A stretch of DNA of 40,534 bases from positions 1 to 40,534 of the IMG/VR virus record IMGVR_UViG_3300017776_000043; one strand, written 5' to 3'. The notes beneath the pieces are model-generated. The model saw only the letters and a program-made list of their open reading frames with translations. It ran no database searches and was not told where the DNA came from. This document shows, piece after piece, positions 33,127-40,534 of this stretch; the first letter of the stretch is position 1, and each line of letters begins with the position of its first letter. A program made the position numbers and the translations under genes. This stretch comes from a virus.

Positions 33127-33603
33127 ATGGCATATTCGGGTAGATACAGAGTAAAAAACACAAAGAAGTACGAGGGAGACCATACTGTTGTGGTATATCG
33201 TTCTCTGTGGGAGAAACATGCATTCAAATGGTGTGATAACAACCCCAAAGTAGTAAAATGGTCTTCTGAAGAGGTTATTATACCATACTTATATGAAGTT
33301 GACAAGCGTTATCATAGATATTTTATGGATTTAAAAATGGTCATGGAAGATGGTAAGACTTGGTTGGTTGAGATTAAACCAGATAAAGAGACTAGAATTC
33401 CTACAGGTAGTCGCAGAACTAAAAAGTTTATATCTGAAAGTATGACTTACGTAAAGAATATAAATAAGTGGGAAGCGGCAAATGAATATGCAAAAGACCG
33501 TGGATGGAGATTTGTTATCTGGACTGAAAAGAATGAACCACTCAAGTCTCTTATTCCTAAATCAACAAAACCACTGAGACCTTTCACCAAAAGAAAAAGA
33601 TGA
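33127..33603 (+). CDS. gp4: Head completion nuclease gp4 (TnsA-like fold)
   Basis: A 158-aa protein matching T4 gp4 (head completion). The fold is that of a TnsA/PD-(D/E)xK nuclease: YRSLWEKHAFKWCD (E29), RYFMDLKMVM (D68) and WLVEIKP (E82, K84) give the expected E...D...ExK catalytic set. The basic C-terminus (PKSTKPLRPFTKRKR) may bind DNA. T4 gp4 acts after packaging, before tail joining. First gene of the plus-strand operon, it overlaps the radical SAM gene by 4 bases (ATGA). The AAGG site fixes the start. Confidence 0.93.
   Translation: MAYSGRYRVKNTKKYEGDHTVVVYRSLWEKHAFKWCDNNPKVVKWSSEEVIIPYLYEVDKRYHRYFMDLKMVMEDGKTWLVEIKPDKETRIPTGSRRTKKFISESMTYVKNINKWEAANEYAKDRGWRFVIWTEKNEPLKSLIPKSTKPLRPFTKRKR
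33459..33466 (+). promoter_or_regulatory. Possible internal late promoter TATAAATA inside gp4
   Basis: The plus strand reads AATATAAATAAGTG within the gp4 coding sequence (Asn-Ile-Asn-Lys), 134 bases before the radical SAM gene's ATG. It is sense-oriented like all other copies found, but could be chance. Confidence 0.3.
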
Positions 33604-35330
33604 AACACCATGGATTAATAATAACTGGTGCGTCCTTTACATACCCGATAGGTAAAGGATTTGTTCCAGAACATGCAGTTTATGATTCTGGTAATTGGGA
33701 AGAAATGCCAGTTAGGGGAACGGGCGCTCATAGGATTGCAACCCATTTAAGAAATACTGGGAAGTGGGACATTGAAGTTGTAGACTTTCTTGAGGCATGG
33801 GACGATAGTGAACTACATGAATTTTGTGAAACTCGAATCACTAAGAATACCAAATGGATAGGGTTCAGTGTGTTCTTCACATATTCAATTCACGAAGCAC
33901 CACCTATAGTAAGAAAACAAAACAGACTCATAAAACACATTAAGGAAAGATACCCTTGGGTAAAAATCGTAGTAGGTGCAAATAAACTAGTTAATGTTGT
34001 CCGACACGAAAATGTCGATTACTTTTGTATAGGTAATGGAGAACATGCAATTGTCGCTCTGTGTGATTATTTTACTGGTAATGCAAAACACCCTAAAGTA
34101 AAAGTCAAAATTAATCCTTTCAATCAAATAGACATGGTAGGAAAGGAATTTGTTATTATGGATTGTTTTAATGACTATCCCGCATTTCCTCATAAGAATC
34201 CACACACATCATACGAAGAAAGAGATTTTATACAAAAGGATGAAGTATTGACCATGGAGTTGTCTAGAGGATGTATATTCAAATGTACATTCTGTGACTA
34301 CTCCCCGTTAGGTGTTAAGGGTGACCATAGTAGACATGCAGAAAACTTTGAAGAAGAACTAAGAGAGAACTATGAGAAATGGGGTGTAACACATTACTGT
34401 CTTGCAGATGAGACCGCTAATGCAAGTTCTGAGTACATATCAAAGTTTGCAGACGTTGTAAGAAAACTTCCCTTTCAACCTCAGTTCCATGGATTTATTC
34501 GTGGTGACTTGTTAATAAGACGAGCAAAACAAGACTGGGACAATATGATTGATATGGGATTCACCAGTCAGTCTATGGGTATTGAAACATTTAACCATGC
34601 ATCTGGTAAATCTATTAACAAAGGTTTTTCTCCATTACAGATGCAAGAGGGATTACTTGCATCCGCAGAGTATTTTAAGAAGAATAGACATACTGGTAAT
34701 CATTACAATCAAACATTGACAATGATTGCGGGATTACCTCACGAAACATTTGAAACTTTAGATAAATCTGGAGAATGGTTGAATAAGTATTGGTGGAATC
34801 AAGTTACAATACATCCATTGTATATATCACAACATGTCTCAGATGGTGTTGATGCAGTTTCAGATATAGAAAAAGACCCGTCCAAATATGGATACACGTG
34901 GAGAGATAAAACTCTTTTAGATAAAGCTATAGAAAATTACTATTATCAACACTGGGAAGTAAAGAGAGTAATAAACCCAAACCCCTCTTTACGACAAATG
35001 GTAGATAATTTTCCAAAAGATGCTGCTCTAAAGGAAGAGTTAAAAAACCGTGCAGAAAAAACATTTCAACAAGTATGGGTACATCCAAGTGGAAATTACG
35101 ACCAAATTGACATGTTAGAATGGACTACTAAGTATCAATCAGACAGAATAATCAAACTAGGAAGACCAGAAAGTCTATCTGGATGGCATATGGGTTGGTA
35201 CAAACAACTAGGATATGACTTGAGAGAGACTTACGAAGAAAAACTACCCGATATAACAAGAAAAGACGTAAAGAAATATTTCAAAAACCTCGAAAGATAT
35301 AAGAAAGATAAGTTAAATTGGTATAAATAG
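33600..35330 (+). CDS. B12-binding-type radical SAM enzyme (576 aa)
   Basis: Residues about 1-170 resemble a cobalamin-binding Rossmann domain: GTGAHRIATHLRNTGKWDIEVVDF, WIGFSVFFTYS, VKIVVGANKLVN, VDYFCIGNGEHAI. The DxHxxG cobalt-ligand motif is not obvious. The radical SAM core follows with LSRGCIFKCTFCDYSPLG: C225-x3-C229-x2-C232 binds the [4Fe-4S] cluster. Later core strands are visible (HYCLADETAN, FHGFIRGDLL, SQSMGIETFNH, TLTMIAGLPHET). About 150 C-terminal residues rich in Tyr/Trp/Lys may bind substrate. It is coupled to gp4 (ATGA) and lies in the tail operon, so it is expressed late. The substrate is unknown: a virion protein, a nucleotide or a host metabolite are all possible. The radical SAM call is secure; cobalamin use is inferred. 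Confidence 0.88.
   Translation: MKHHGLIITGASFTYPIGKGFVPEHAVYDSGNWEEMPVRGTGAHRIATHLRNTGKWDIEVVDFLEAWDDSELHEFCETRITKNTKWIGFSVFFTYSIHEAPPIVRKQNRLIKHIKERYPWVKIVVGANKLVNVVRHENVDYFCIGNGEHAIVALCDYFTGNAKHPKVKVKINPFNQIDMVGKEFVIMDCFNDYPAFPHKNPHTSYEERDFIQKDEVLTMELSRGCIFKCTFCDYSPLGVKGDHSRHAENFEEELRENYEKWGVTHYCLADETANASSEYISKFADVVRKLPFQPQFHGFIRGDLLIRRAKQDWDNMIDMGFTSQSMGIETFNHASGKSINKGFSPLQMQEGLLASAEYFKKNRHTGNHYNQTLTMIAGLPHETFETLDKSGEWLNKYWWNQVTIHPLYISQHVSDGVDAVSDIEKDPSKYGYTWRDKTLLDKAIENYYYQHWEVKRVINPNPSLRQMVDNFPKDAALKEELKNRAEKTFQQVWVHPSGNYDQIDMLEWTTKYQSDRIIKLGRPESLSGWHMGWYKQLGYDLRETYEEKLPDITRKDVKKYFKNLERYKKDKLNWYK
35322..35329 (+). promoter_or_regulatory. TATAAATA motif 5 bases before the 197-aa gene
   Basis: The plus strand reads TATAAATAGAACT then ATG. 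It overlaps the radical SAM gene's TAG stop. As at gp25, the motif is so close that a transcript would start near the start codon. No Shine-Dalgarno sequence is visible before this ATG. Confidence 0.45.
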
Positions 35331-35334
35331 AACT

Positions 35335-35928
35335 ATGAGTAATATATTCAACAGACTAGAATTACAGGCATTCCGTGCGGGAGTTACTCCCCGTACCAAA
35401 GAATCCCGTGAATGGTTCAGAAAGAAAGCATCTAACATGCGGTCTATCAATCGTGAAGCATTGATGAAAGAAGACCAGATAAAACAAAGAGCGAATCGCG
35501 GTATTATTGGTTCTATGCAGATGTTTTTCTATGACCCAAAGACTAAAGATAAACTTCCATACTATGATGCATTCCCATTGATTATTGTAGTCGGGCCAGC
35601 AGAGGGTGGATTCTATGGAATCAACCTTCATTATCTTCCACCTATCCTTCGTGCAAAAATGTTGGATGCATTGATGGAAGTTGCGTCCAGTAAGAACTCT
35701 GACGATGCAAAGTTTAATATTACTTACAAGAGATTACAGGGTATTGCAAAGTTGCGATACTACAAACCATGTTTTAAACACTACTTGAATTCACATGTCA
35801 AGAGTAAGTTTGCAGAAGTTCCTGCTCCAGAGTGGGAGATTGCAACATTCTTACCGACTGCACAGTTCCGTAAATCGAACTCACAGAAAGTATTCTATGA
35901 TTCAAGACAGGCAATAGGTAAAGACTAA
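35335..35928 (+). CDS. Conserved T4-like virion protein, possibly DNA end protector gp2 (197 aa)
   Basis: The core SMQMFFYDPKTKDKLPYYDAFPLIIVVGPAEGGFYGINLHYLPPILRAKMLDALM, with LQGIAKLRYYKPCFKHYLNSHVKSKF after it, belongs to a conserved protein of T4-like phages found beside gp4 and tail genes. The N-terminus is basic (FRAGVTPRTKESREWFRKKASNMR), fitting nucleic-acid or virion binding. In T4 the neighbour of gp4 is gene 2 (DNA end protector), and I suspect the same here, but this rests on position and memory of similar sequences, not a decisive motif. The stop overlaps the next ATG (TAATG). Confidence 0.6.
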   Translation: MSNIFNRLELQAFRAGVTPRTKESREWFRKKASNMRSINREALMKEDQIKQRANRGIIGSMQMFFYDPKTKDKLPYYDAFPLIIVVGPAEGGFYGINLHYLPPILRAKMLDALMEVASSKNSDDAKFNITYKRLQGIAKLRYYKPCFKHYLNSHVKSKFAEVPAPEWEIATFLPTAQFRKSNSQKVFYDSRQAIGKD

Positions 35929-36629
35929 TGAGTATTCGTATTGACGATTTTAAATCATCTGTAGGTGCTGGCGGGGGAATCGCATTAGGAAGTCTATATA
36001 AGATTTTCTTACCACCTATCAAAGGTGACGCACGTAACTTAAACTTGTTATGTAAAGCAGCGTCATTGCCTGGCAGACAAATTCTTTCTACAGAAAGACC
36101 AATGGGTATTGATGTTACTAAAGTTGCATATGGTTATGCAGTAGATGACGTAACACTCACGTTCCATTGTTTGAATGATATGGGTATCAGAGAATACTTT
36201 GAACTGTGGCAAGAACAAGCAGTAAATGCAGAAACAAAAGAAGTTGGATATTACAACGATTACACACATCCTGTTATTATTCAACATATTAAAAAGGGTA
36301 TTTCTTTCCCTATAAAGAAAAAGAAACTATTTGACTCTGGTAAAATTCCTTCTGCAATTAGAGGAAGATTACCAAGACTAGGCCCGTTAGACCTCGCACA
36401 AGGTGAGTTTGATTTAAATGCGGTGTTCGGTGACGATATCACATATACGTTACTCCTAGATAAAGCATACCCAACAACATTGAATGCAATTGAGTTGAGT
36501 GATGACGGACAATTACTTGAAGTGACGGTACAACTGTCATATAAGAATTGGAAGTCAAAAAAGGGTGACCGTGTAGGAAACGATTTTGTCGAAGGACTTG
36601 CGGGTGAACTGATTAGGAAATTTTTATAA
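35928..36629 (+). CDS. gp54: Tail-tube-fold baseplate protein, gp54-like (233 aa)
   Basis: The pattern LYKIFLPPIKGDARNLNLLCKAASLPGRQILSTERPMGIDVTKVAYGYAVDDVTLTFHCLNDMGIREYFELWQEQ is that of phage tail-tube-fold proteins: a strand with a Cys, the LPGRQI turn, then a TLTFH strand and the helix REYFELW. The C-terminal strands (YTLLLDKAYPTTLNAIELS ... LLEVTVQLSYKNW) complete the barrel. The middle has a basic insert (PIKKKKLFDSGK). It lies with the tape measure rather than with the sheath, so the tube-initiator gp54 is more likely than gp19. It could instead be another tube-like baseplate subunit. Confidence 0.65.
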   Translation: MSIRIDDFKSSVGAGGGIALGSLYKIFLPPIKGDARNLNLLCKAASLPGRQILSTERPMGIDVTKVAYGYAVDDVTLTFHCLNDMGIREYFELWQEQAVNAETKEVGYYNDYTHPVIIQHIKKGISFPIKKKKLFDSGKIPSAIRGRLPRLGPLDLAQGEFDLNAVFGDDITYTLLLDKAYPTTLNAIELSDDGQLLEVTVQLSYKNWKSKKGDRVGNDFVEGLAGELIRKFL

Positions 36630-36644
36630 TATTTGGAGAATATA

Positions 36645-37352
36645 ATGGCACTACCTAAGTTAAATGATAATCTAAAGTATGAGATGGTAATCCCATCATC
36701 TGAAAAGGTTGTCACATATAGACCATATTTGGTCAAAGAAGAGAAACTTCTTCTCTCTGCTTTTGAGTCGCAAGACCAGAAACAGGCAATGAGGGCAATG
36801 GTCGATACCGTTGTCGCATGTGTGAATGAAGATATTAAAACAAGTGACCTTGCAACGTTCGATGTTGAATACATGTTCACTCAGATTCGTAGTAAGTCGG
36901 TTGGTGAGACATCAACCTTACACTTTAAATGTGAGGCTGAAGAATGTGAGTTAAGGACAGAGGTTGATATTGACTTATCGTCTCTTGAAGTTACAAAATC
37001 AGATGCAAACAATGTGGTTGAGATTACAGATGATATCTCTATTGAACTAAGATATCCTACTTATGATGGATTCGTAAAGAACTTCCGTGAAGGTGTTTCT
37101 GAAGCGGAGTTTGGATTCATGATGTTAGAAGACTGTATGGTTGCAATCATGACAGAAGACGAACATCATCTTGTATCAGACGTAAGTAAAAAAGAACTGA
37201 ATGAATTTATAGATTCAATGACAAACATACAGTTTACAAAGGTTGGTGAATACCTAAAAACTGTACCAGTCATGAAAAAAGAAGTAGAGTTTAAATGTAC
37301 ATGTGGTCACGAGAATAAAGTGACTCTGGAGGGTCTTCAAGATTTTTTTTAA
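36645..37352 (+). CDS. gp26: gp26-like baseplate hub / tail assembly chaperone (235 aa)
   Basis: A T4 gp26-family protein: PKLNDNLKYEMVIPSSEKVVTYRPYLVKEEKLLLSAFES, DVEYMFTQIRSKSVGE. I place the start at ATG 36645, not the in-frame TTG at 36633, because GGAGAA (36635-36640) is the ribosome binding site and contains that TTG. Cysteines C96, C101, C218 and C220 (with H222) form two pairs, FKCEAEECELR and FKCTCGHEN, that could bind zinc or an Fe-S cluster. The gene ends in GAT followed by T8 and TAA. That run is a -1 slippery site leading into a further 61 codons, so this is probably the short form of a G/GT-like chaperone pair. Confidence 0.85.
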   Translation: MALPKLNDNLKYEMVIPSSEKVVTYRPYLVKEEKLLLSAFESQDQKQAMRAMVDTVVACVNEDIKTSDLATFDVEYMFTQIRSKSVGETSTLHFKCEAEECELRTEVDIDLSSLEVTKSDANNVVEITDDISIELRYPTYDGFVKNFREGVSEAEFGFMMLEDCMVAIMTEDEHHLVSDVSKKELNEFIDSMTNIQFTKVGEYLKTVPVMKKEVEFKCTCGHENKVTLEGLQDFF

Positions 37353-37366
37353 TATGCCTCTCGCAT
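37343..37366 (+). promoter_or_regulatory. Probable -1 frameshift site at the end of gp26
   Basis: In the zero frame the end is GAT TTT TTT TAA. Bases 37343-37349 are T TTT TTT, a perfect X XXY YYZ slippery heptamer within T8. A -1 slip puts the ribosome into an open frame of 61 codons. A small hairpin (ATGC, loop CTCTC, GCAT; 37354-37366) starts four bases after the slippery run. It is weak, so pausing may rely on the run and the stop codon. RNA polymerase slippage on T8 is an alternative. Confidence 0.65.
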
Positions 37367-37534
37367 GATAATTTGGTCAATCATTTTAAGACCAACTTTG
37401 CGTTAATGCAACACTTTAATTATTCATTGTATGACATAGAACATATGATGCCATGGGAGAGGGAGATTTACCTAGTATTACTAGAGGAATATCTTAAAGA
37501 ACAAGAAGAACGAATGAAAAACCAAAACGGATAA
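37349..37534 (+). CDS. gp51-like extension reached by -1 frameshift from gp26
   Basis: This open -1 frame has no usable start of its own: the only ATGs are well inside (37406 and later) with no ribosome binding site. It encodes 61 residues after the slip, including FKTNFALMQHFNYS, IEHMMPWEREIYLVLLEEYLKEQEER. The W-E-R-E-I-Y-L..LL..YLKEQE helix matches the tail of T-type chaperones that read Met-Pro-x-x-Glu-Arg before a long helix. It stops at TAA 37532-37534, four bases before the tape-measure ATG. The full fusion would be 296 aa. Separate translation from ATG 37406 (42 aa) is the alternative. Confidence 0.68.
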   Translation, partial: LICLSHDNLVNHFKTNFALMQHFNYSLYDIEHMMPWEREIYLVLLEEYLKEQEERMKNQNG

Positions 37535-37538
37535 GACA

Positions 37539-39221
37539 ATGGCAGAATTAACCATATCACACCTCACTGAAGCAGTTCAGATTGAAGGTATTAAAAGTGA
37601 AAAAAGAGACGAGAAACAGATTAGCGAACTTGCTAGTCTGAATAAATCTTTTGCACAATACTTTAAATCTATGGCAAATCAGGCAGGCGACAATCTTGAA
37701 AAGGAACGTGAAAAGAAGAAAGAAAAGAGTGGTGGCGACCAACCTAGATTTGGACAGATGGTAGGTGATGCAAAGGGGATGGGTTTCCTTGGAGTAATTG
37801 GTGCTATTGGTGCGGCACTTACGGGACTTGTTGTTGGTTTTCTTGATGGTATCAAAGACTCTTTCAAATTAATAACTCCAAAGTTTATAAGAACTGCCTT
37901 TAGTAACAGAGTAATCAAACCAATTACAATGTTATTTGATGCACTAGGAGATATCTTCCGTAAAGCTGGAACAGGACAAATCTTAAAAGGTGATACCTTT
38001 AAAGTGTTTGGTAGATTTACCACAACTCTAGAAAGTATTGCAAAAAGGTTTAAGAGTGTTATTGCTAGTGTTCGTTCTGGTTCAACTAAGTTCTTTGAGT
38101 TCTTTGGTAAGATAGGTGACTTTTTTAAATCTATCGGTAGAAATATAAAAGCGTTTTTTCTAAGTTCAGATGTCATAAGGAATCAACTCAAGAATTTTTC
38201 TAAACTGGGAGAGACATTTAAAACAATTACAAAAGGTGCATCTGAAGGGGGAAGTATCTTTGCTCGACTTGGTGAAGTCGTTAAACCATTCTTTAATGTG
38301 TTCAAAAGAATAGGTAAGTTCTTAGGTGGGCCGATTACAGTTGCAATCATTAGTATCATTGATGGGTTTATTGGTTCATTCAAAGCGTTCACTGATACTG
38401 AGGGTGGAATCTTTGCAAAAATTAGTGCCGCTATTAGTGGTTTCTTTGCGGGAATTACATCTGGTTTTATTGGTGGTTTACTTGACCTTGGTAAAATGGT
38501 AATTGGTTTTGTTGCGGGTCTATTTGGATTCGACTCCTTCAAAGAAAAACTTGCTGAGTTTTCATTCCAAGATATGATTTTTGATGGATTGATGTTCCCA
38601 TTCAGAGCAGTCATGTCTCTGTTTGATGGTAAAGACGGTAACATGTTCTCAACCCTAGCGTCAGATTTGATAGAGGGTATCAAAAGTATCTTTAGTGGTA
38701 TTACTGGATTTGTCAAACAGAAGTTTAAAGCTATTGGTAGTTCAATAGCAGGATTCTTTGGATTTGGTGGTGACGAAGAACCAGAAGTAAAAGAAATTAA
38801 AGAAGGTAAAGTAGTTCCTAAAGTAGAAAAACAAGTTGTTACACCACCACAAGACGATGATTTCCATGAAGTTCGAGGTACAGACGAAGACGGATTCAAT
38901 TATACAGAAACAAAAAGAGCCCCTAAGTCTGAACAAGATATGATGGCGGCAGAAGAAGAACGTTACAAGAGACACCTAAAACTTAATCAAGACCGTATGG
39001 TTAAGTATAATGAACAAGGTAAGGGTGGTAGTAAAGGTGCAATGTATACGGAAGAACGTATAATGAAATTGCAAGCAAAACTAGATGAATTACAGGCAAA
39101 ACAATCTGCGGGTAATACAGTGATTGCACCATCAACAACAACTAACACAACCAACTCAAGTAGTCAAGCAGTATATGGTGACGCTTCACCCGCTACAGAT
39201 GACTTAGACAGGGTTGCATAA
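37539..39221 (+). CDS. gp29: Tail tape measure protein, gp29 equivalent (560 aa)
   Basis: A long protein directly after the chaperone pair, the usual place for the tape measure. Residues about 75-105 and 260-360 contain hydrophobic Gly/Ala/Phe/Ile segments (FLGVIGAIGAALTGLVVGFLDG, ISGFFAGITSGFIGGLLDLG), typical of tape measures that enter the inner membrane on ejection. Long amphipathic helices with KSFAQYFKSMANQAG and FFEFFGKIGDFFKSIGRNI lie between. The C-terminal 100 residues are charged, then Thr/Ser/Asn-rich. T4 gp29 has 590 aa, so tail length should be similar if the helix rule holds. The stop overlaps the iscU start (TAATG). Confidence 0.8.
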   Translation: MAELTISHLTEAVQIEGIKSEKRDEKQISELASLNKSFAQYFKSMANQAGDNLEKEREKKKEKSGGDQPRFGQMVGDAKGMGFLGVIGAIGAALTGLVVGFLDGIKDSFKLITPKFIRTAFSNRVIKPITMLFDALGDIFRKAGTGQILKGDTFKVFGRFTTTLESIAKRFKSVIASVRSGSTKFFEFFGKIGDFFKSIGRNIKAFFLSSDVIRNQLKNFSKLGETFKTITKGASEGGSIFARLGEVVKPFFNVFKRIGKFLGGPITVAIISIIDGFIGSFKAFTDTEGGIFAKISAAISGFFAGITSGFIGGLLDLGKMVIGFVAGLFGFDSFKEKLAEFSFQDMIFDGLMFPFRAVMSLFDGKDGNMFSTLASDLIEGIKSIFSGITGFVKQKFKAIGSSIAGFFGFGGDEEPEVKEIKEGKVVPKVEKQVVTPPQDDDFHEVRGTDEDGFNYTETKRAPKSEQDMMAAEEERYKRHLKLNQDRMVKYNEQGKGGSKGAMYTEERIMKLQAKLDELQAKQSAGNTVIAPSTTTNTTNSSSQAVYGDASPATDDLDRVA

Positions 39222-39643
39222 TGGCATACTCACAAAAAGTAATAGACAGATTCGAGGGTGTATTAAATGCACCAGAACAATTTAGTGTTGGTAGATTTGA
39301 CCCTAATGACCCAGACATTGCAACAGGAATGGCAGGCGCTCCCGCATGTGGAGACGTTATGAAACTGCAATTGAAACTAGACGAAAACGAGATGATAGTA
39401 GATGTCAAATTCAAAACCTATGGATGCGGAAGTGCGATTGCATCAAGTTCAATGTTCGTTGACTTACTTAAAGGCAAAACAATTGACGAAGCAAAACAGA
39501 TTAAAGATAAAGAAATTGCAGATGCTCTTGACTTACCTCCAATCAAACTCCACTGTTCAGTCCTCGCAGAAGACTCTATAAAAAAAGCAGTAGAAGATTG
39601 GGAACAGAAAAATAATAAATTCGAACGGGCAATGTTTCCGTGA
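39221..39643 (+). CDS. iscU: IscU Fe-S cluster scaffold protein
   Basis: A 140-aa full-length IscU homologue. Ligand cysteines are C43 (GAPACGDVMKLQ), C69 (KTYGCGSAIASSS) and C112 (IKLHCSVLAEDS), with D45 and H111 also conserved. The LPPIK motif at 105-109 is the HscA-recognition sequence of the Isc (not Suf) pathway. The N-terminus AYSQKVIDRFEG... and a slightly longer C-terminal tail (EQKNNKFERAMFP) are otherwise normal. IscU receives sulfur from IscS and builds [2Fe-2S]/[4Fe-4S] clusters. No iscS, hscA or fdx is present, so host partners would be used. It is coupled to the tape measure and to iscA, meaning late expression with tail genes. A likely client is the radical SAM enzyme of the same operon. 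Confidence 0.95.
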   Translation: MAYSQKVIDRFEGVLNAPEQFSVGRFDPNDPDIATGMAGAPACGDVMKLQLKLDENEMIVDVKFKTYGCGSAIASSSMFVDLLKGKTIDEAKQIKDKEIADALDLPPIKLHCSVLAEDSIKKAVEDWEQKNNKFERAMFP

Positions 39644-39969
39644 TTGAATTGACTGACGCTGCTGTACAGAAATGTATTCAGAGAACTGAAGACAGACATA
39701 TGAAGATGATACGTCTTGGTGTTACTTCAGGGGGATGTGTTGGTTTTGAATATGTTATTGAGTATGCGGATGAGTCTAAAGACGATGATATTGCTTTTGA
39801 CTATGGTAAGTTTACTATAGTTATTGATGAGATGTCATTACCTTACTTAGAAGAATCTACTTTAGATTGGACTAAGCAAGGTCTTAACGAGTATTTCAAG
39901 ATAACAAACCCTAGAGAAGTATCATCCTGTGGATGTGGGACTTCTATAGGATTTGACCCTTTACCATAA
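39640..39969 (+). CDS. iscA: IscA/ErpA-type A-type Fe-S carrier
   Basis: A 109-aa HesB/IscA-family protein with the three conserved cysteines C33 (VTSGGCVGFEY), C97 and C99 (SSCGCGTSIGF), matching IscA C35, C99, C101. It starts at GTG 39640, which overlaps the iscU stop (GTGA), the only start that keeps the family N-terminus (IELTDAAVQK). A-type carriers pass clusters from IscU to apoproteins, often radical SAM enzymes. Together with iscU it forms a minimal scaffold-carrier pair. The stop at 39967-39969 overlaps the end of the convergent TonB-receptor gene by 9 bases. No terminator hairpin is visible there. Confidence 0.93.
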   Translation: MIELTDAAVQKCIQRTEDRHMKMIRLGVTSGGCVGFEYVIEYADESKDDDIAFDYGKFTIVIDEMSLPYLEESTLDWTKQGLNEYFKITNPREVSSCGCGTSIGFDPLP

Positions 39970-40534
39970 AAGATTCCAACTAAGTCTAAAGATACGTCCA
40001 CCAGCCGCATAGTCTGGAATATACTCATACGAGTTATCTAATGCGTCTTCTATCTCAAGTTTGTAAGTACCTATTGCACCATTAGTGAAACTATAACTGA
40101 TATTAAATGTACTGACATCGTCAATTAGTCTACCATCAAAGTCAACACCTTTATCAAACTCTCCTAGATACTCAATAGTAAATCCATAGTCTGTATATGC
40201 AATCTTTGTTCTATAGTTTGGAACTCTTAGTTTATCTGAATCTGTAATCTCACCATATACAAATACCTTACCAATGTTCTTTTCTAATCTAATACCTCTA
40301 GACCTATATTCACCAGTGTTGATATAAGAATAAGCATTCATATCAAAATCTATTCCTTCATCAAACTTATAGTAATACAGAGATAATCCTTTGTATCCTA
40401 ATTCAGTTCCACGTCCTTGTTCTGGTAACAAGTTAGGATTTGCTGATACCCAAGAATCACCAAACTGTTCGTATAGATTAGGTAGTCGATAACTATTACC
40501 CATAGAGAATCTATATCCATTGTTTTCTAATCCT
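39961..40534 (-). CDS. TonB-dependent receptor, BtuB-like C-terminal barrel (N-terminus beyond window)
   Basis: The frame is open to the right edge, so about 190 C-terminal residues are seen. GYRFSMGNSYRLPNLYEQFG and ANPNLLPEQGRGTELGYKG are the TonB-receptor barrel motif (FRxPNLxELYG...NPNLxPE). Then come alternating strands with turns (NTGEYRSRGIRLEKN, YRTKIAYTDYGFTIEYLGEF) and a C-terminal strand ending in Trp (RLSWNLLW), the outer-membrane-protein signature for BAM. The strand order near ...IEDALDNSYEYIPDYAAGGRIFRLSW resembles BtuB ([20 protein letters not shown]). The plug and TonB box would lie outside the window. The gene is convergent to iscA and ends inside its last codons. Cobalamin or iron-chelate uptake is possible; substrate unknown. 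Confidence 0.82.
   Translation of the reverse strand, partial: GLENNGYRFSMGNSYRLPNLYEQFGDSWVSANPNLLPEQGRGTELGYKGLSLYYYKFDEGIDFDMNAYSYINTGEYRSRGIRLEKNIGKVFVYGEITDSDKLRVPNYRTKIAYTDYGFTIEYLGEFDKGVDFDGRLIDDVSTFNISYSFTNGAIGTYKLEIEDALDNSYEYIPDYAAGGRIFRLSWNLLW

What the first reader, a model, noticed from the sequence alone, without database searches (positions are those of the whole stretch)
33600..40534. Iron-linked gene set (radical SAM, IscU, IscA, TonB receptor) inside a phage tail operon
Within 7 kb, interleaved with gp4, gp54-like, gp26 and tape-measure genes, lie a B12-type radical SAM enzyme with CxxxCxxC, an IscU with all ligand cysteines and the HscA motif, an IscA with all three cysteines, and a convergent BtuB-like receptor. 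Radical SAM enzymes need [4Fe-4S] clusters, IscU/IscA supply them, and TonB receptors import iron chelates or cobalamin (established family knowledge). The inference is that the phage carries uptake, cluster assembly and a cluster-using (perhaps cobalamin-using) enzyme as one functional set expressed late. Alternatives: each gene serves a separate purpose, or the clusters go to a tail protein, as the lambda gpL tip binds [4Fe-4S].
Basis: partly seen in the sequence, partly recalled or inferred. Interest (0 to 1): 0.88.

Follow-up and report, generated by a model that had tools for sequence, protein, structure and literature searches.

The report
Phage-borne B12-receptor-like protein family
A group of T4-like phages, probably marine, carries its own outer-membrane receptor that resembles the bacterial vitamin B12 importer, often together with iron-sulfur assembly genes and B12-type radical enzymes, which suggests that some phages may supply B12 and iron-sulfur clusters to the cells they infect.

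Summary
All four genes are real. The receptor is a phage gene, not host chromosome: near-identical longer contigs complete it (491 aa, beside gp32). It belongs to a phage family of 41 viral loci (28 distinct sequences among 37 extracted). No relative was found by one pattern-based scan of 84,980 prokaryote genomes or by tblastn in 50,697 phage records. Plug and a predicted 22-strand barrel are present. BtuB, the B12 transporter, is the nearest solved structure by sequence and fold. Seven of nine best homologues in 369 cellular genomes have a cobalamin riboswitch in the same locus. The radical SAM enzyme resembles B12-binding types.

'One set expressed late' is only partly supported. Each gene has its own insertion site, combinations vary between relatives, and the receptor is on the opposite strand with gp32. 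IscU is a widespread, published phage gene. At genome level, receptor-bearing groups (contigs of 38 kb or more) carry IscU in 8 of 10, against 1 of 9 receptor-less T4-like contigs, and B12-type radical SAM in 6 of 10 against 1 of 9. Two phages place receptor and B12-type radical SAM as adjacent genes.

Best reading: a phage-encoded corrinoid importer feeding B12/Fe-S enzymes during infection. Transport is not shown.

The parts
33127..33603 (+). gp4-like head closure protein; its stop overlaps the rSAM start
   Evidence: phrog_218 E 2e-52
33600..35330 (+). B12-binding-type radical SAM enzyme, 576 aa, inserted between gp4 and gp2
   Evidence: PF04055; first and most NCBIfam hits are B12-binding rSAM models, all far below their cut-offs; PF02310 E 1.6e-5 on the N-terminal part in the near-identical contig G001, below its gathering score; fold hits OxsB, CysS, TokK, TsrM
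35335..35928 (+). gp2-like DNA end protector (phage backbone)
   Evidence: phrog_429 E 8e-52; 71% to Phage C48C1
35928..36629 (+). tail tube protein (phage backbone)
   Evidence: phrog_45 E 2e-30
36648..37352 (+). gp26-type baseplate hub protein (phage backbone)
   Evidence: PF12322 E 5e-53; phrog_150
37539..39221 (+). tape-measure-like tail protein; last base of its stop is the first base of the IscU start
   Evidence: weak tape-measure PHROGs, best E 6e-8
39221..39643 (+). IscU/NifU_N-like Fe-S scaffold protein
   Evidence: PF01592 E 7e-41; TIGR01999 169 bits, cut-off 192
39640..39969 (+). A-type Fe-S carrier (IscA-like)
   Evidence: PF01521 E 1e-16; TIGR00049 98.8 bits, above its 58.8 cut-off
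39961..40533 (-). C-terminal 190 aa of a BtuB-like TonB-dependent receptor; the complete gene is L112:10004-11479, next to gp32
   Evidence: PF00593 E 5e-10; completed in L001-L004 and L112; structure and homology

Best explanation
The convergent gene is a member of a phage family of compact BtuB-like TonB-dependent outer-membrane transporters. Proposed mechanism: during infection the phage receptor is exported through the host Sec and BAM machinery, inserts in the outer membrane, engages host TonB by its conserved TonB box, and raises import of a corrinoid (vitamin B12 or a relative). The host inner-membrane transporter finishes the uptake. In the cytoplasm the corrinoid and Fe-S clusters, the latter helped by phage IscU/IscA, load phage B12-binding radical SAM enzymes (and host ones). 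The genes are separately inserted cargo on a T4-like backbone rather than one operon, but they tend to be collected in the same genomes. Shown: gene identity, phage location, family spread, predicted fold, relationship to B12 transporters, purifying selection, genome-level association. Inferred: substrate, transport, timing, and the coupling of import to the rSAM enzyme. What the rSAM enzyme modifies is unknown.
For: Family: 41 viral loci, best-segment identity 36-100%; N-terminal EE motif (read as the TonB box), plug and NDPSSGWYDFG-like loop conserved in 26 aligned members; dN/dS 0.11-0.24 in 10 of 11 pairs, 0.43 in one very close pair. Substrate class: the A2 profile against all PDB sequences matched only BtuB and BtuB1 at E<=0.1, 7 sequences; Foldseek top 15 all BtuB or BtuB1/3; VIA-align BtuB Z 35.3, 2.6 A over 468 residues, best non-B12 receptor Z 30.5; 17 of 26 members hit the TonB-B12 model and 14 the BtuB model, 8 a haemoglobin/transferrin one; 7 of the 9 homologues at E<=1e-12 found in 369 genomes of a SAR86 bacterium's class carry a cobalamin riboswitch. 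Cofactor link: rSAM of B12 type; contig groups of 38 kb or more: IscU 8 of 10 vs 1 of 9, B12-type rSAM 6 of 10 vs 1 of 9; in the gp44-drawn set as a whole IscU is in 2 of 3 receptor records vs 2 of 39 others; receptor and B12-type rSAM adjacent in G018/L336 and G466/L332; a dicluster ferredoxin gene directly before the B12-type rSAM in L139.
Against: No transport data. The receptor is far from full BtuB models (the C-terminal piece scores about 30 bits against cut-offs of 600-836), and the window species' full-length receptor hit only haem/transferrin models at E<=0.001. No cobalamin riboswitch in the 11 phage loci scanned. The rSAM's NCBIfam scores are all below cut-off (best 52 vs 360 bits), PF02310 is below its gathering score (21.6 vs 32.1 bits), and lower fold hits include MiaB and RimO, which are not known as B12 enzymes. 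Within the window's own group most relatives lack one or more of the genes, and the window-type rSAM is common in receptor-less relatives (L017, L020-L024), which were not part of the comparison. Receptor-less records G457, G489 and G042 also have a B12-type rSAM; receptor-less G468 and G487 have IscU. The association counts use fragments, related phages, and a 38-kb cut chosen after seeing the lengths. A CobS homologue is strong in 12 group B and C records but not in the 149-kb window phage or the 83-kb group B record G007.
Confidence: 0.58

Rival explanations
1. Separate auxiliary genes: receptor, rSAM and IscU/IscA are independent cargo, each useful alone, brought together because the same T4-like phages and hosts exchange them.
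For: Several combinations occur and each gene has its own site; IscU is common in phages where the others were not seen; Phage C48C1 has a NifU gene far from an otherwise empty backbone; marine T4-like phages are known to accumulate many rSAM genes (PMC5332604, section 14).
Against: Enrichment of IscU and B12-type rSAM with the receptor in three groups and two receptor-rSAM gene pairs.
Confidence: 0.25
2. The receptor imports iron as haem or a siderophore, and the shared theme is iron for Fe-S clusters rather than B12.
For: 8 of 26 members touch the haemoglobin/transferrin receptor model, the window species among them; haem transporter ChuA ranks just below the B12 transporters by fold; a FecR-domain protein is in the same phage.
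Against: Only B12 transporters match by profile in PDB; more members match B12 models; nearest cellular homologues mostly have cobalamin riboswitches.
Confidence: 0.1
3. Superinfection exclusion or decoy: the phage replaces or mimics a host receptor used by competing phages.
For: BtuB-type receptors are well-known phage receptors (general knowledge); the phage version is compact, 486-531 aa as extracted.
Against: N-terminal TonB-box-like motif, plug and hatch-like loop are among the best conserved parts; purifying selection; association with corrinoid and Fe-S genes.
Confidence: 0.04
4. IscU/IscA supply a cluster to a tail protein, as suggested from lambda gpL.
For: In the window the IscU start overlaps the stop of a tail gene.
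Against: In group B IscU-IscA sit by gp46, in group C beside a 421-aa gene not named by any search, and the tail neighbours occur without Isc genes in relatives.
Confidence: 0.03

Closest known systems
BtuB, E. coli TonB-dependent vitamin B12 transporter
   Same: Plug plus 22-strand barrel, TonB-box-like N-terminus, best profile and fold match
   Different: About 19% identity, about 100 residues shorter, phage-encoded, no cobalamin riboswitch in the loci scanned, own deep group
SusC-type TonB receptor of marine megaphage Mar_Mega_1 (PMC9723777; passages read)
   Same: TonB-dependent receptor carried by a marine phage; a SusC protein of an 'uncultured marine phage' is the only clear TonB receptor in BFVD (that it is this phage's protein was not tested)
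   Different: The BFVD protein has 805 residues and 11% identity; the paper's authors suggest carbohydrate uptake; different receptor class
Fe-S auxiliary gene sets of marine T4-like viruses (Nishimura 2017, PMC5332604; passages and section 14 read)
   Same: IscU, A-type carrier and several radical SAM genes in T4-like virus genomes
   Different: The main text has no occurrence of TonB; no B12 receptor described in what I read
Cobalamin-dependent radical SAM enzymes (OxsB, CysS, TokK, TsrM)
   Same: Predicted fold and CxxxCxxC; NCBIfam B12-rSAM hits
   Different: 12-14% identity, sub-cut-off scores, unknown substrate, sited between gp4 and gp2 of a phage

Membership tests
BtuB (TonB-dependent cobalamin transporter) | Signal peptide, TonB box, plug domain | tested here: met
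   Plug PF07715 E 8e-7, conserved in 26-row alignment; signal peptide and TonB box judged by eye, no predictor run
BtuB (TonB-dependent cobalamin transporter) | 22-strand barrel of BtuB type | tested here: met
   AF2 pLDDT 85, strands counted by me from DSSP; BtuB Z 35.3
BtuB (TonB-dependent cobalamin transporter) | Score over the curated BtuB equivalog cut-off | tested here: not met
   C-terminal piece 28-30 bits vs 600-836; the full-length window-species receptor listed no B12 model at E<=0.001; so filed as BtuB-like, not BtuB
BtuB (TonB-dependent cobalamin transporter) | Upstream cobalamin riboswitch (frequent, not universal) | tested here: not met
   None in 11 phage loci; present in 7 of 9 nearest cellular homologues
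BtuB (TonB-dependent cobalamin transporter) | Binds and transports corrinoid | not testable with these tools
   Needs experiment
Cobalamin-dependent radical SAM enzyme | CxxxCxxC radical SAM core | tested here: met
   PF04055 E 5e-10
Cobalamin-dependent radical SAM enzyme | N-terminal B12-binding domain | tested here: inconclusive
   PF02310 E 1.6e-5 but under gathering score; fold matches OxsB, CysS, TokK, TsrM
IscU | NifU_N domain with three ligand Cys, Asp and LPPVK-like motif | tested here: met
   PF01592 E 7e-41; motifs read in the sequence
IscU | Score over IscU equivalog cut-off | tested here: not met
   169.3 vs 192.4 bits; IscU-like scaffold
A-type Fe-S carrier (IscA/SufA/ErpA) | TIGR00049 subfamily cut-off and three Cys | tested here: met
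   98.8 vs 58.8 bits; which A-type subgroup is not resolved

The most novel reading that the evidence does not exclude
A phage-specific outer-membrane corrinoid importer, passed among T4-like phages, works with phage Fe-S assembly and phage B12-radical-SAM enzymes as a distributed metal-cofactor programme that changes the vitamin B12 budget of infected cells.
Probability: 0.45. Interest if true: 0.88.

Novelty: new variant of a known kind. Interest (0 to 1): 0.76.

Why it matters
Lytic phages are not usually expected to build a nutrient transporter in the outer membrane of a cell they are about to lyse. [quoted passage not shown] This family gives a concrete gene with which to test that idea, in an ocean where B12 is scarce and many bacteria cannot make it (general knowledge). 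It also gives a possible purpose to the many radical SAM and Fe-S genes already noted in these phages.

Tried and rejected
Host contamination or misassembly of the receptor: rejected, because it sits between phage core genes on several independent contigs. Window genes as one co-inherited cassette: rejected from relatives. Cobalamin riboswitch control in the phage: searched in 11 loci, none. Cellular origin of the receptor: one genome-contig scan with A1 found nothing related (277 pattern stretches, none confirmed); 369 genomes of the class of a SAR86 bacterium (Gammaproteobacteria by general knowledge) gave 9 weak homologues, 49-65 bits, against 731 and 783 bits for two phage receptors that are not in the profile; donor unresolved. 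The pattern-first search can miss distant cellular relatives. Host from IscU: best genome-collection hit (71%) is itself a phage-like contig with gp32 in a Synechococcus bin, next SAR86 at 63%; not decisive. CobS as part of the set: strong in 12 group B and C records, but the clpP-peptidase-CobS block also occurs without the receptor in L342, L343 and L345, so not counted as evidence. Habitat: no call gave one; 'marine' is inferred from relatives such as HTVC008M and from recall of IMG numbering.

Literature, held PMC library only: phage- or virus-encoded TonB (0 papers); TonB with AMG and Fe-S terms; TonB receptor with AMG and viral contigs (3 listed, passages of 2 opened); iscU with marine AMG (3 listed, 1 opened); btuB with AMG (6 listed, passages of 2 opened); cobS with cyanophage (15 of 16 listed, none opened); vitamin B12 transporter with phage genome (8 listed, 1 of them opened); TonB, B12 and T4-like terms (15 listed, none of them holding 'TonB-dependent'; passages of PMC10547690 and PMC9004378 opened); SAR86 with TonB. 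Nothing I opened describes a phage-encoded B12 receptor. Opened: passages of PMC9004378 (a host btuB only), PMC12300592, PMC9723777, PMC12494485, PMC10547690; passages and section 14 of PMC5332604. The rest were seen as listings. Subscription papers and preprints are not held.

Counts left out or chosen: 41 receptor loci found, 37 extracted, 28 distinct (L007 cut at its N-terminus), 26 aligned (L120 and L141 left out). IscU scan: 80 best of 253 loci seen. gp44 background: 589 relatives, 80 returned, 42 of these records searched, the shortest mostly left out. The 38-kb cut was set after seeing the lengths; it drops receptor-less G468 (21.5 kb, IscU present) and G457 (30 kb, B12-type rSAM present), and receptor record G466 (31 kb, no IscU, B12-type rSAM present). 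Record level: 10 of 15 receptor records of 38 kb or more have IscU. B12-type rSAM over all: 9 of 23 receptor records, 3 of 23 others (one-sided Fisher p 0.045); its profile was partly built from receptor phages. G002 was not.
Full report
Observation. The four genes are present at the stated coordinates. The rSAM start overlaps the gp4 stop, the IscU start overlaps the tape-measure-like stop, and the IscA start overlaps the IscU stop, so these three are tied to structural genes. The receptor is on the other strand, overlaps the 3' end of IscA by 9 bases, and is cut by the window end. The window is a 40.5-kb virus record.

The receptor is phage DNA. Near-identical contigs of 103 kb and 149 kb complete the gene and continue into gp32, a pyrimidine-dimer-glycosylase-like gene and further phage genes. 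In the window species the order is tape measure, IscU, IscA, receptor (convergent), gp32. In its relatives L005, L111 and L008 the receptor lies instead just after the glycosylase-like gene, and tape measure and gp32 are neighbours; L007 begins inside the receptor but shows the same downstream order. So the receptor has changed place within one phage group. The complete named Phage C48C1, whose gp2 is 71% identical, shows an empty backbone: gp4 directly beside gp2, and no rSAM, Isc or receptor gene annotated between the gene at the tape-measure position (labelled 'peptidase' there) and gp32; its NifU gene is about 71 kb from gp32.

A phage receptor family. An alignment of five receptors found 41 viral loci, best-segment identity 36-100%; 37 were extracted, giving 28 distinct sequences of 486-531 aa, of which 26 were aligned. 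Three groups are seen: A (window), B (L113-L122, L128, L141, L144; ribonucleotide reductase and exonuclease neighbours in L144) and C (L123-L127, L129-L139; in 7 of 9 representatives mapped, between a clpP-like gene and a peptidase-CobS pair, in the gp47-gp46-gp45-gp44 block, the others, L129 and L132, beside the glycosylase-like gene). Mean receptor identity is A-B 53.5%, A-C 43.6%, B-C 44.8%, whereas gp44 of B is closer to C (71-73%) than to A (61%), which suggests exchange between groups A and B. Three receptor-less relatives keep the clpP-peptidase-CobS block without the receptor (L342, L343, L345). One pattern-based scan of 84,980 prokaryote genomes found no relative. tblastn of the window's C-terminal piece at E 1e-5 and of three whole receptors at E 0.01 found none in 50,697 phage records. 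dN/dS was 0.11-0.24 in 10 of 11 pairs and 0.43 in one very close pair.

What it resembles. The AlphaFold model (pLDDT 85, pTM 0.85) shows a plug and, by my count of DSSP strands, a 22-strand barrel in 491 residues. The family profile against all PDB sequences matched only BtuB and BtuB1 at E 0.1 or better. Foldseek ranks 1-15 are B12 transporters. In VIA-align the first 15 rows are B12 transporters (Z 35.3-31.3) and the first other receptor is haem transporter ChuA at Z 30.5. By NCBIfam, 17 of 26 members match the TonB-B12 model, 14 BtuB and 8 a haemoglobin/transferrin model; the window species' own receptor shows only haem/transferrin hits at E 0.001 or better, although its C-terminal piece alone matched BtuB at E 1e-7. 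In 369 genomes of the class of a SAR86 bacterium the nine homologues at E 1e-12 or better score 49-65 bits, and 7 of these 9 loci carry a cobalamin riboswitch at the gathering score, one of them only just. I had no matched control of unrelated TonB receptors for that last count. BFVD holds one clear other viral TonB receptor, a SusC-like protein of an uncultured marine phage; a SusC gene of a marine megaphage is in print.

The rSAM enzyme. Its first and most NCBIfam hits are B12-binding rSAM models, all far below their cut-offs. In the near-identical contig its N-terminal part matches PF02310 at E 1.6e-5, below the gathering score. Its model (pLDDT 81) matches OxsB, CysS, TokK, AprD4, MgmA and TsrM best, then MiaB and RimO. 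Homologues of this type occur in receptor phages of all three groups, and the window phage has a second one. The same gene is also common in receptor-less relatives (L017, L020-L024).

Do the genes go together? Locally, no: see the first-reader verdict. At contig level, yes with caveats. Receptor-bearing records: IscU 9 of 30, IscA 9 of 30, the same nine. Contigs of 38 kb or more, receptors at 97% identity or more counted once: IscU in 8 of 10 groups, against 1 of 9 receptor-less T4-like records drawn by gp44, one-sided Fisher p 0.0045; B12-type rSAM 6 of 10 against 1 of 9, p 0.040. In the gp44-drawn set of 42 records, without a length cut, IscU is in 2 of 3 receptor records and 2 of 39 others, p 0.020. 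Both receptor-less positives (G468, G487) carry an IscU that scores very differently (182-186 against about 138 bits). B12-type rSAM over all: 9 of 23 receptor records, 3 of 23 others, p 0.045. Caveats: the phages are related, the records are fragments, the background may include other habitats, the length cut was set afterwards, the rSAM profile was partly built from receptor phages, and receptor-less relatives known to carry the rSAM were not in that comparison. In two phages the receptor is followed 11 nt later by a B12-type rSAM gene, the two rSAMs being 75% identical (L336 and L332); that is 2 of the 9 group C loci with the clpP-side site whose downstream neighbour was read (L123, L125, L127/L336, L130, L136, L138, L139, L332, L334). 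In L139 a dicluster ferredoxin gene directly precedes the B12-type rSAM.

Mechanism. Shown: identity, location, spread, predicted fold, relationship, selection, association. Inferred: export to the outer membrane, TonB-driven corrinoid uptake, use of the corrinoid and of Fe-S clusters by phage rSAM enzymes. The receptor's side of the genome (with gp32) suggests expression before or separately from the late genes; no expression data were available.

Known and new. Fe-S genes and many rSAM genes in marine T4-like phages are published (PMC5332604, section 14). The receptor family and its link to B12-type rSAM were not found in the searches made, most of whose listed papers I did not open. I file it as a new variant of a known kind: a phage auxiliary gene, here an outer-membrane BtuB-like receptor.

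Noticed in passing
L237:9680-10801 and L237:11212-13032 (149-kb contig G001 of the window phage): A FecR-domain protein followed by a CHASE2-adenylate/guanylate cyclase membrane protein; the cyclase is shared with Pelagibacter phage HTVC008M (44.5%) and Methylophilales phage Melnitz (35%).
   Followed up: partly
L332:5912-6511, L334:3767-4210, L139:9551-9964, L136:9533-9964, L130:9502-9996, L336:12573-13046: A small protein with a signal-peptide-like start and, in most, an ADTSDVI-like and a GSEIQK-like motif sits directly before the receptor in several group C phages; two members scanned had no Pfam match. Possible periplasmic or envelope partner.
   Followed up: partly
L139:16100-16423: Dicluster ferredoxin gene directly upstream of a B12-type radical SAM gene in a receptor-bearing phage.
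   Followed up: no
L332:4151-4384 and L332:13653-14717: Glutaredoxin and an AurF-like oxygenase in the receptor-bearing replication block.
   Followed up: no
L146 (NYUU01000001.1): Contig binned as a Synechococcus MAG in the genome collection looks like a T4-like phage, with gp32-like and IscU genes.
   Followed up: no
G007, G012, G030: Group B receptor phages have 8-9 radical SAM matches each at E 0.001, some under the cut-off; three of those classified in G030 match the twitch-domain rSAM family NF033640 above its cut-off.
   Followed up: partly
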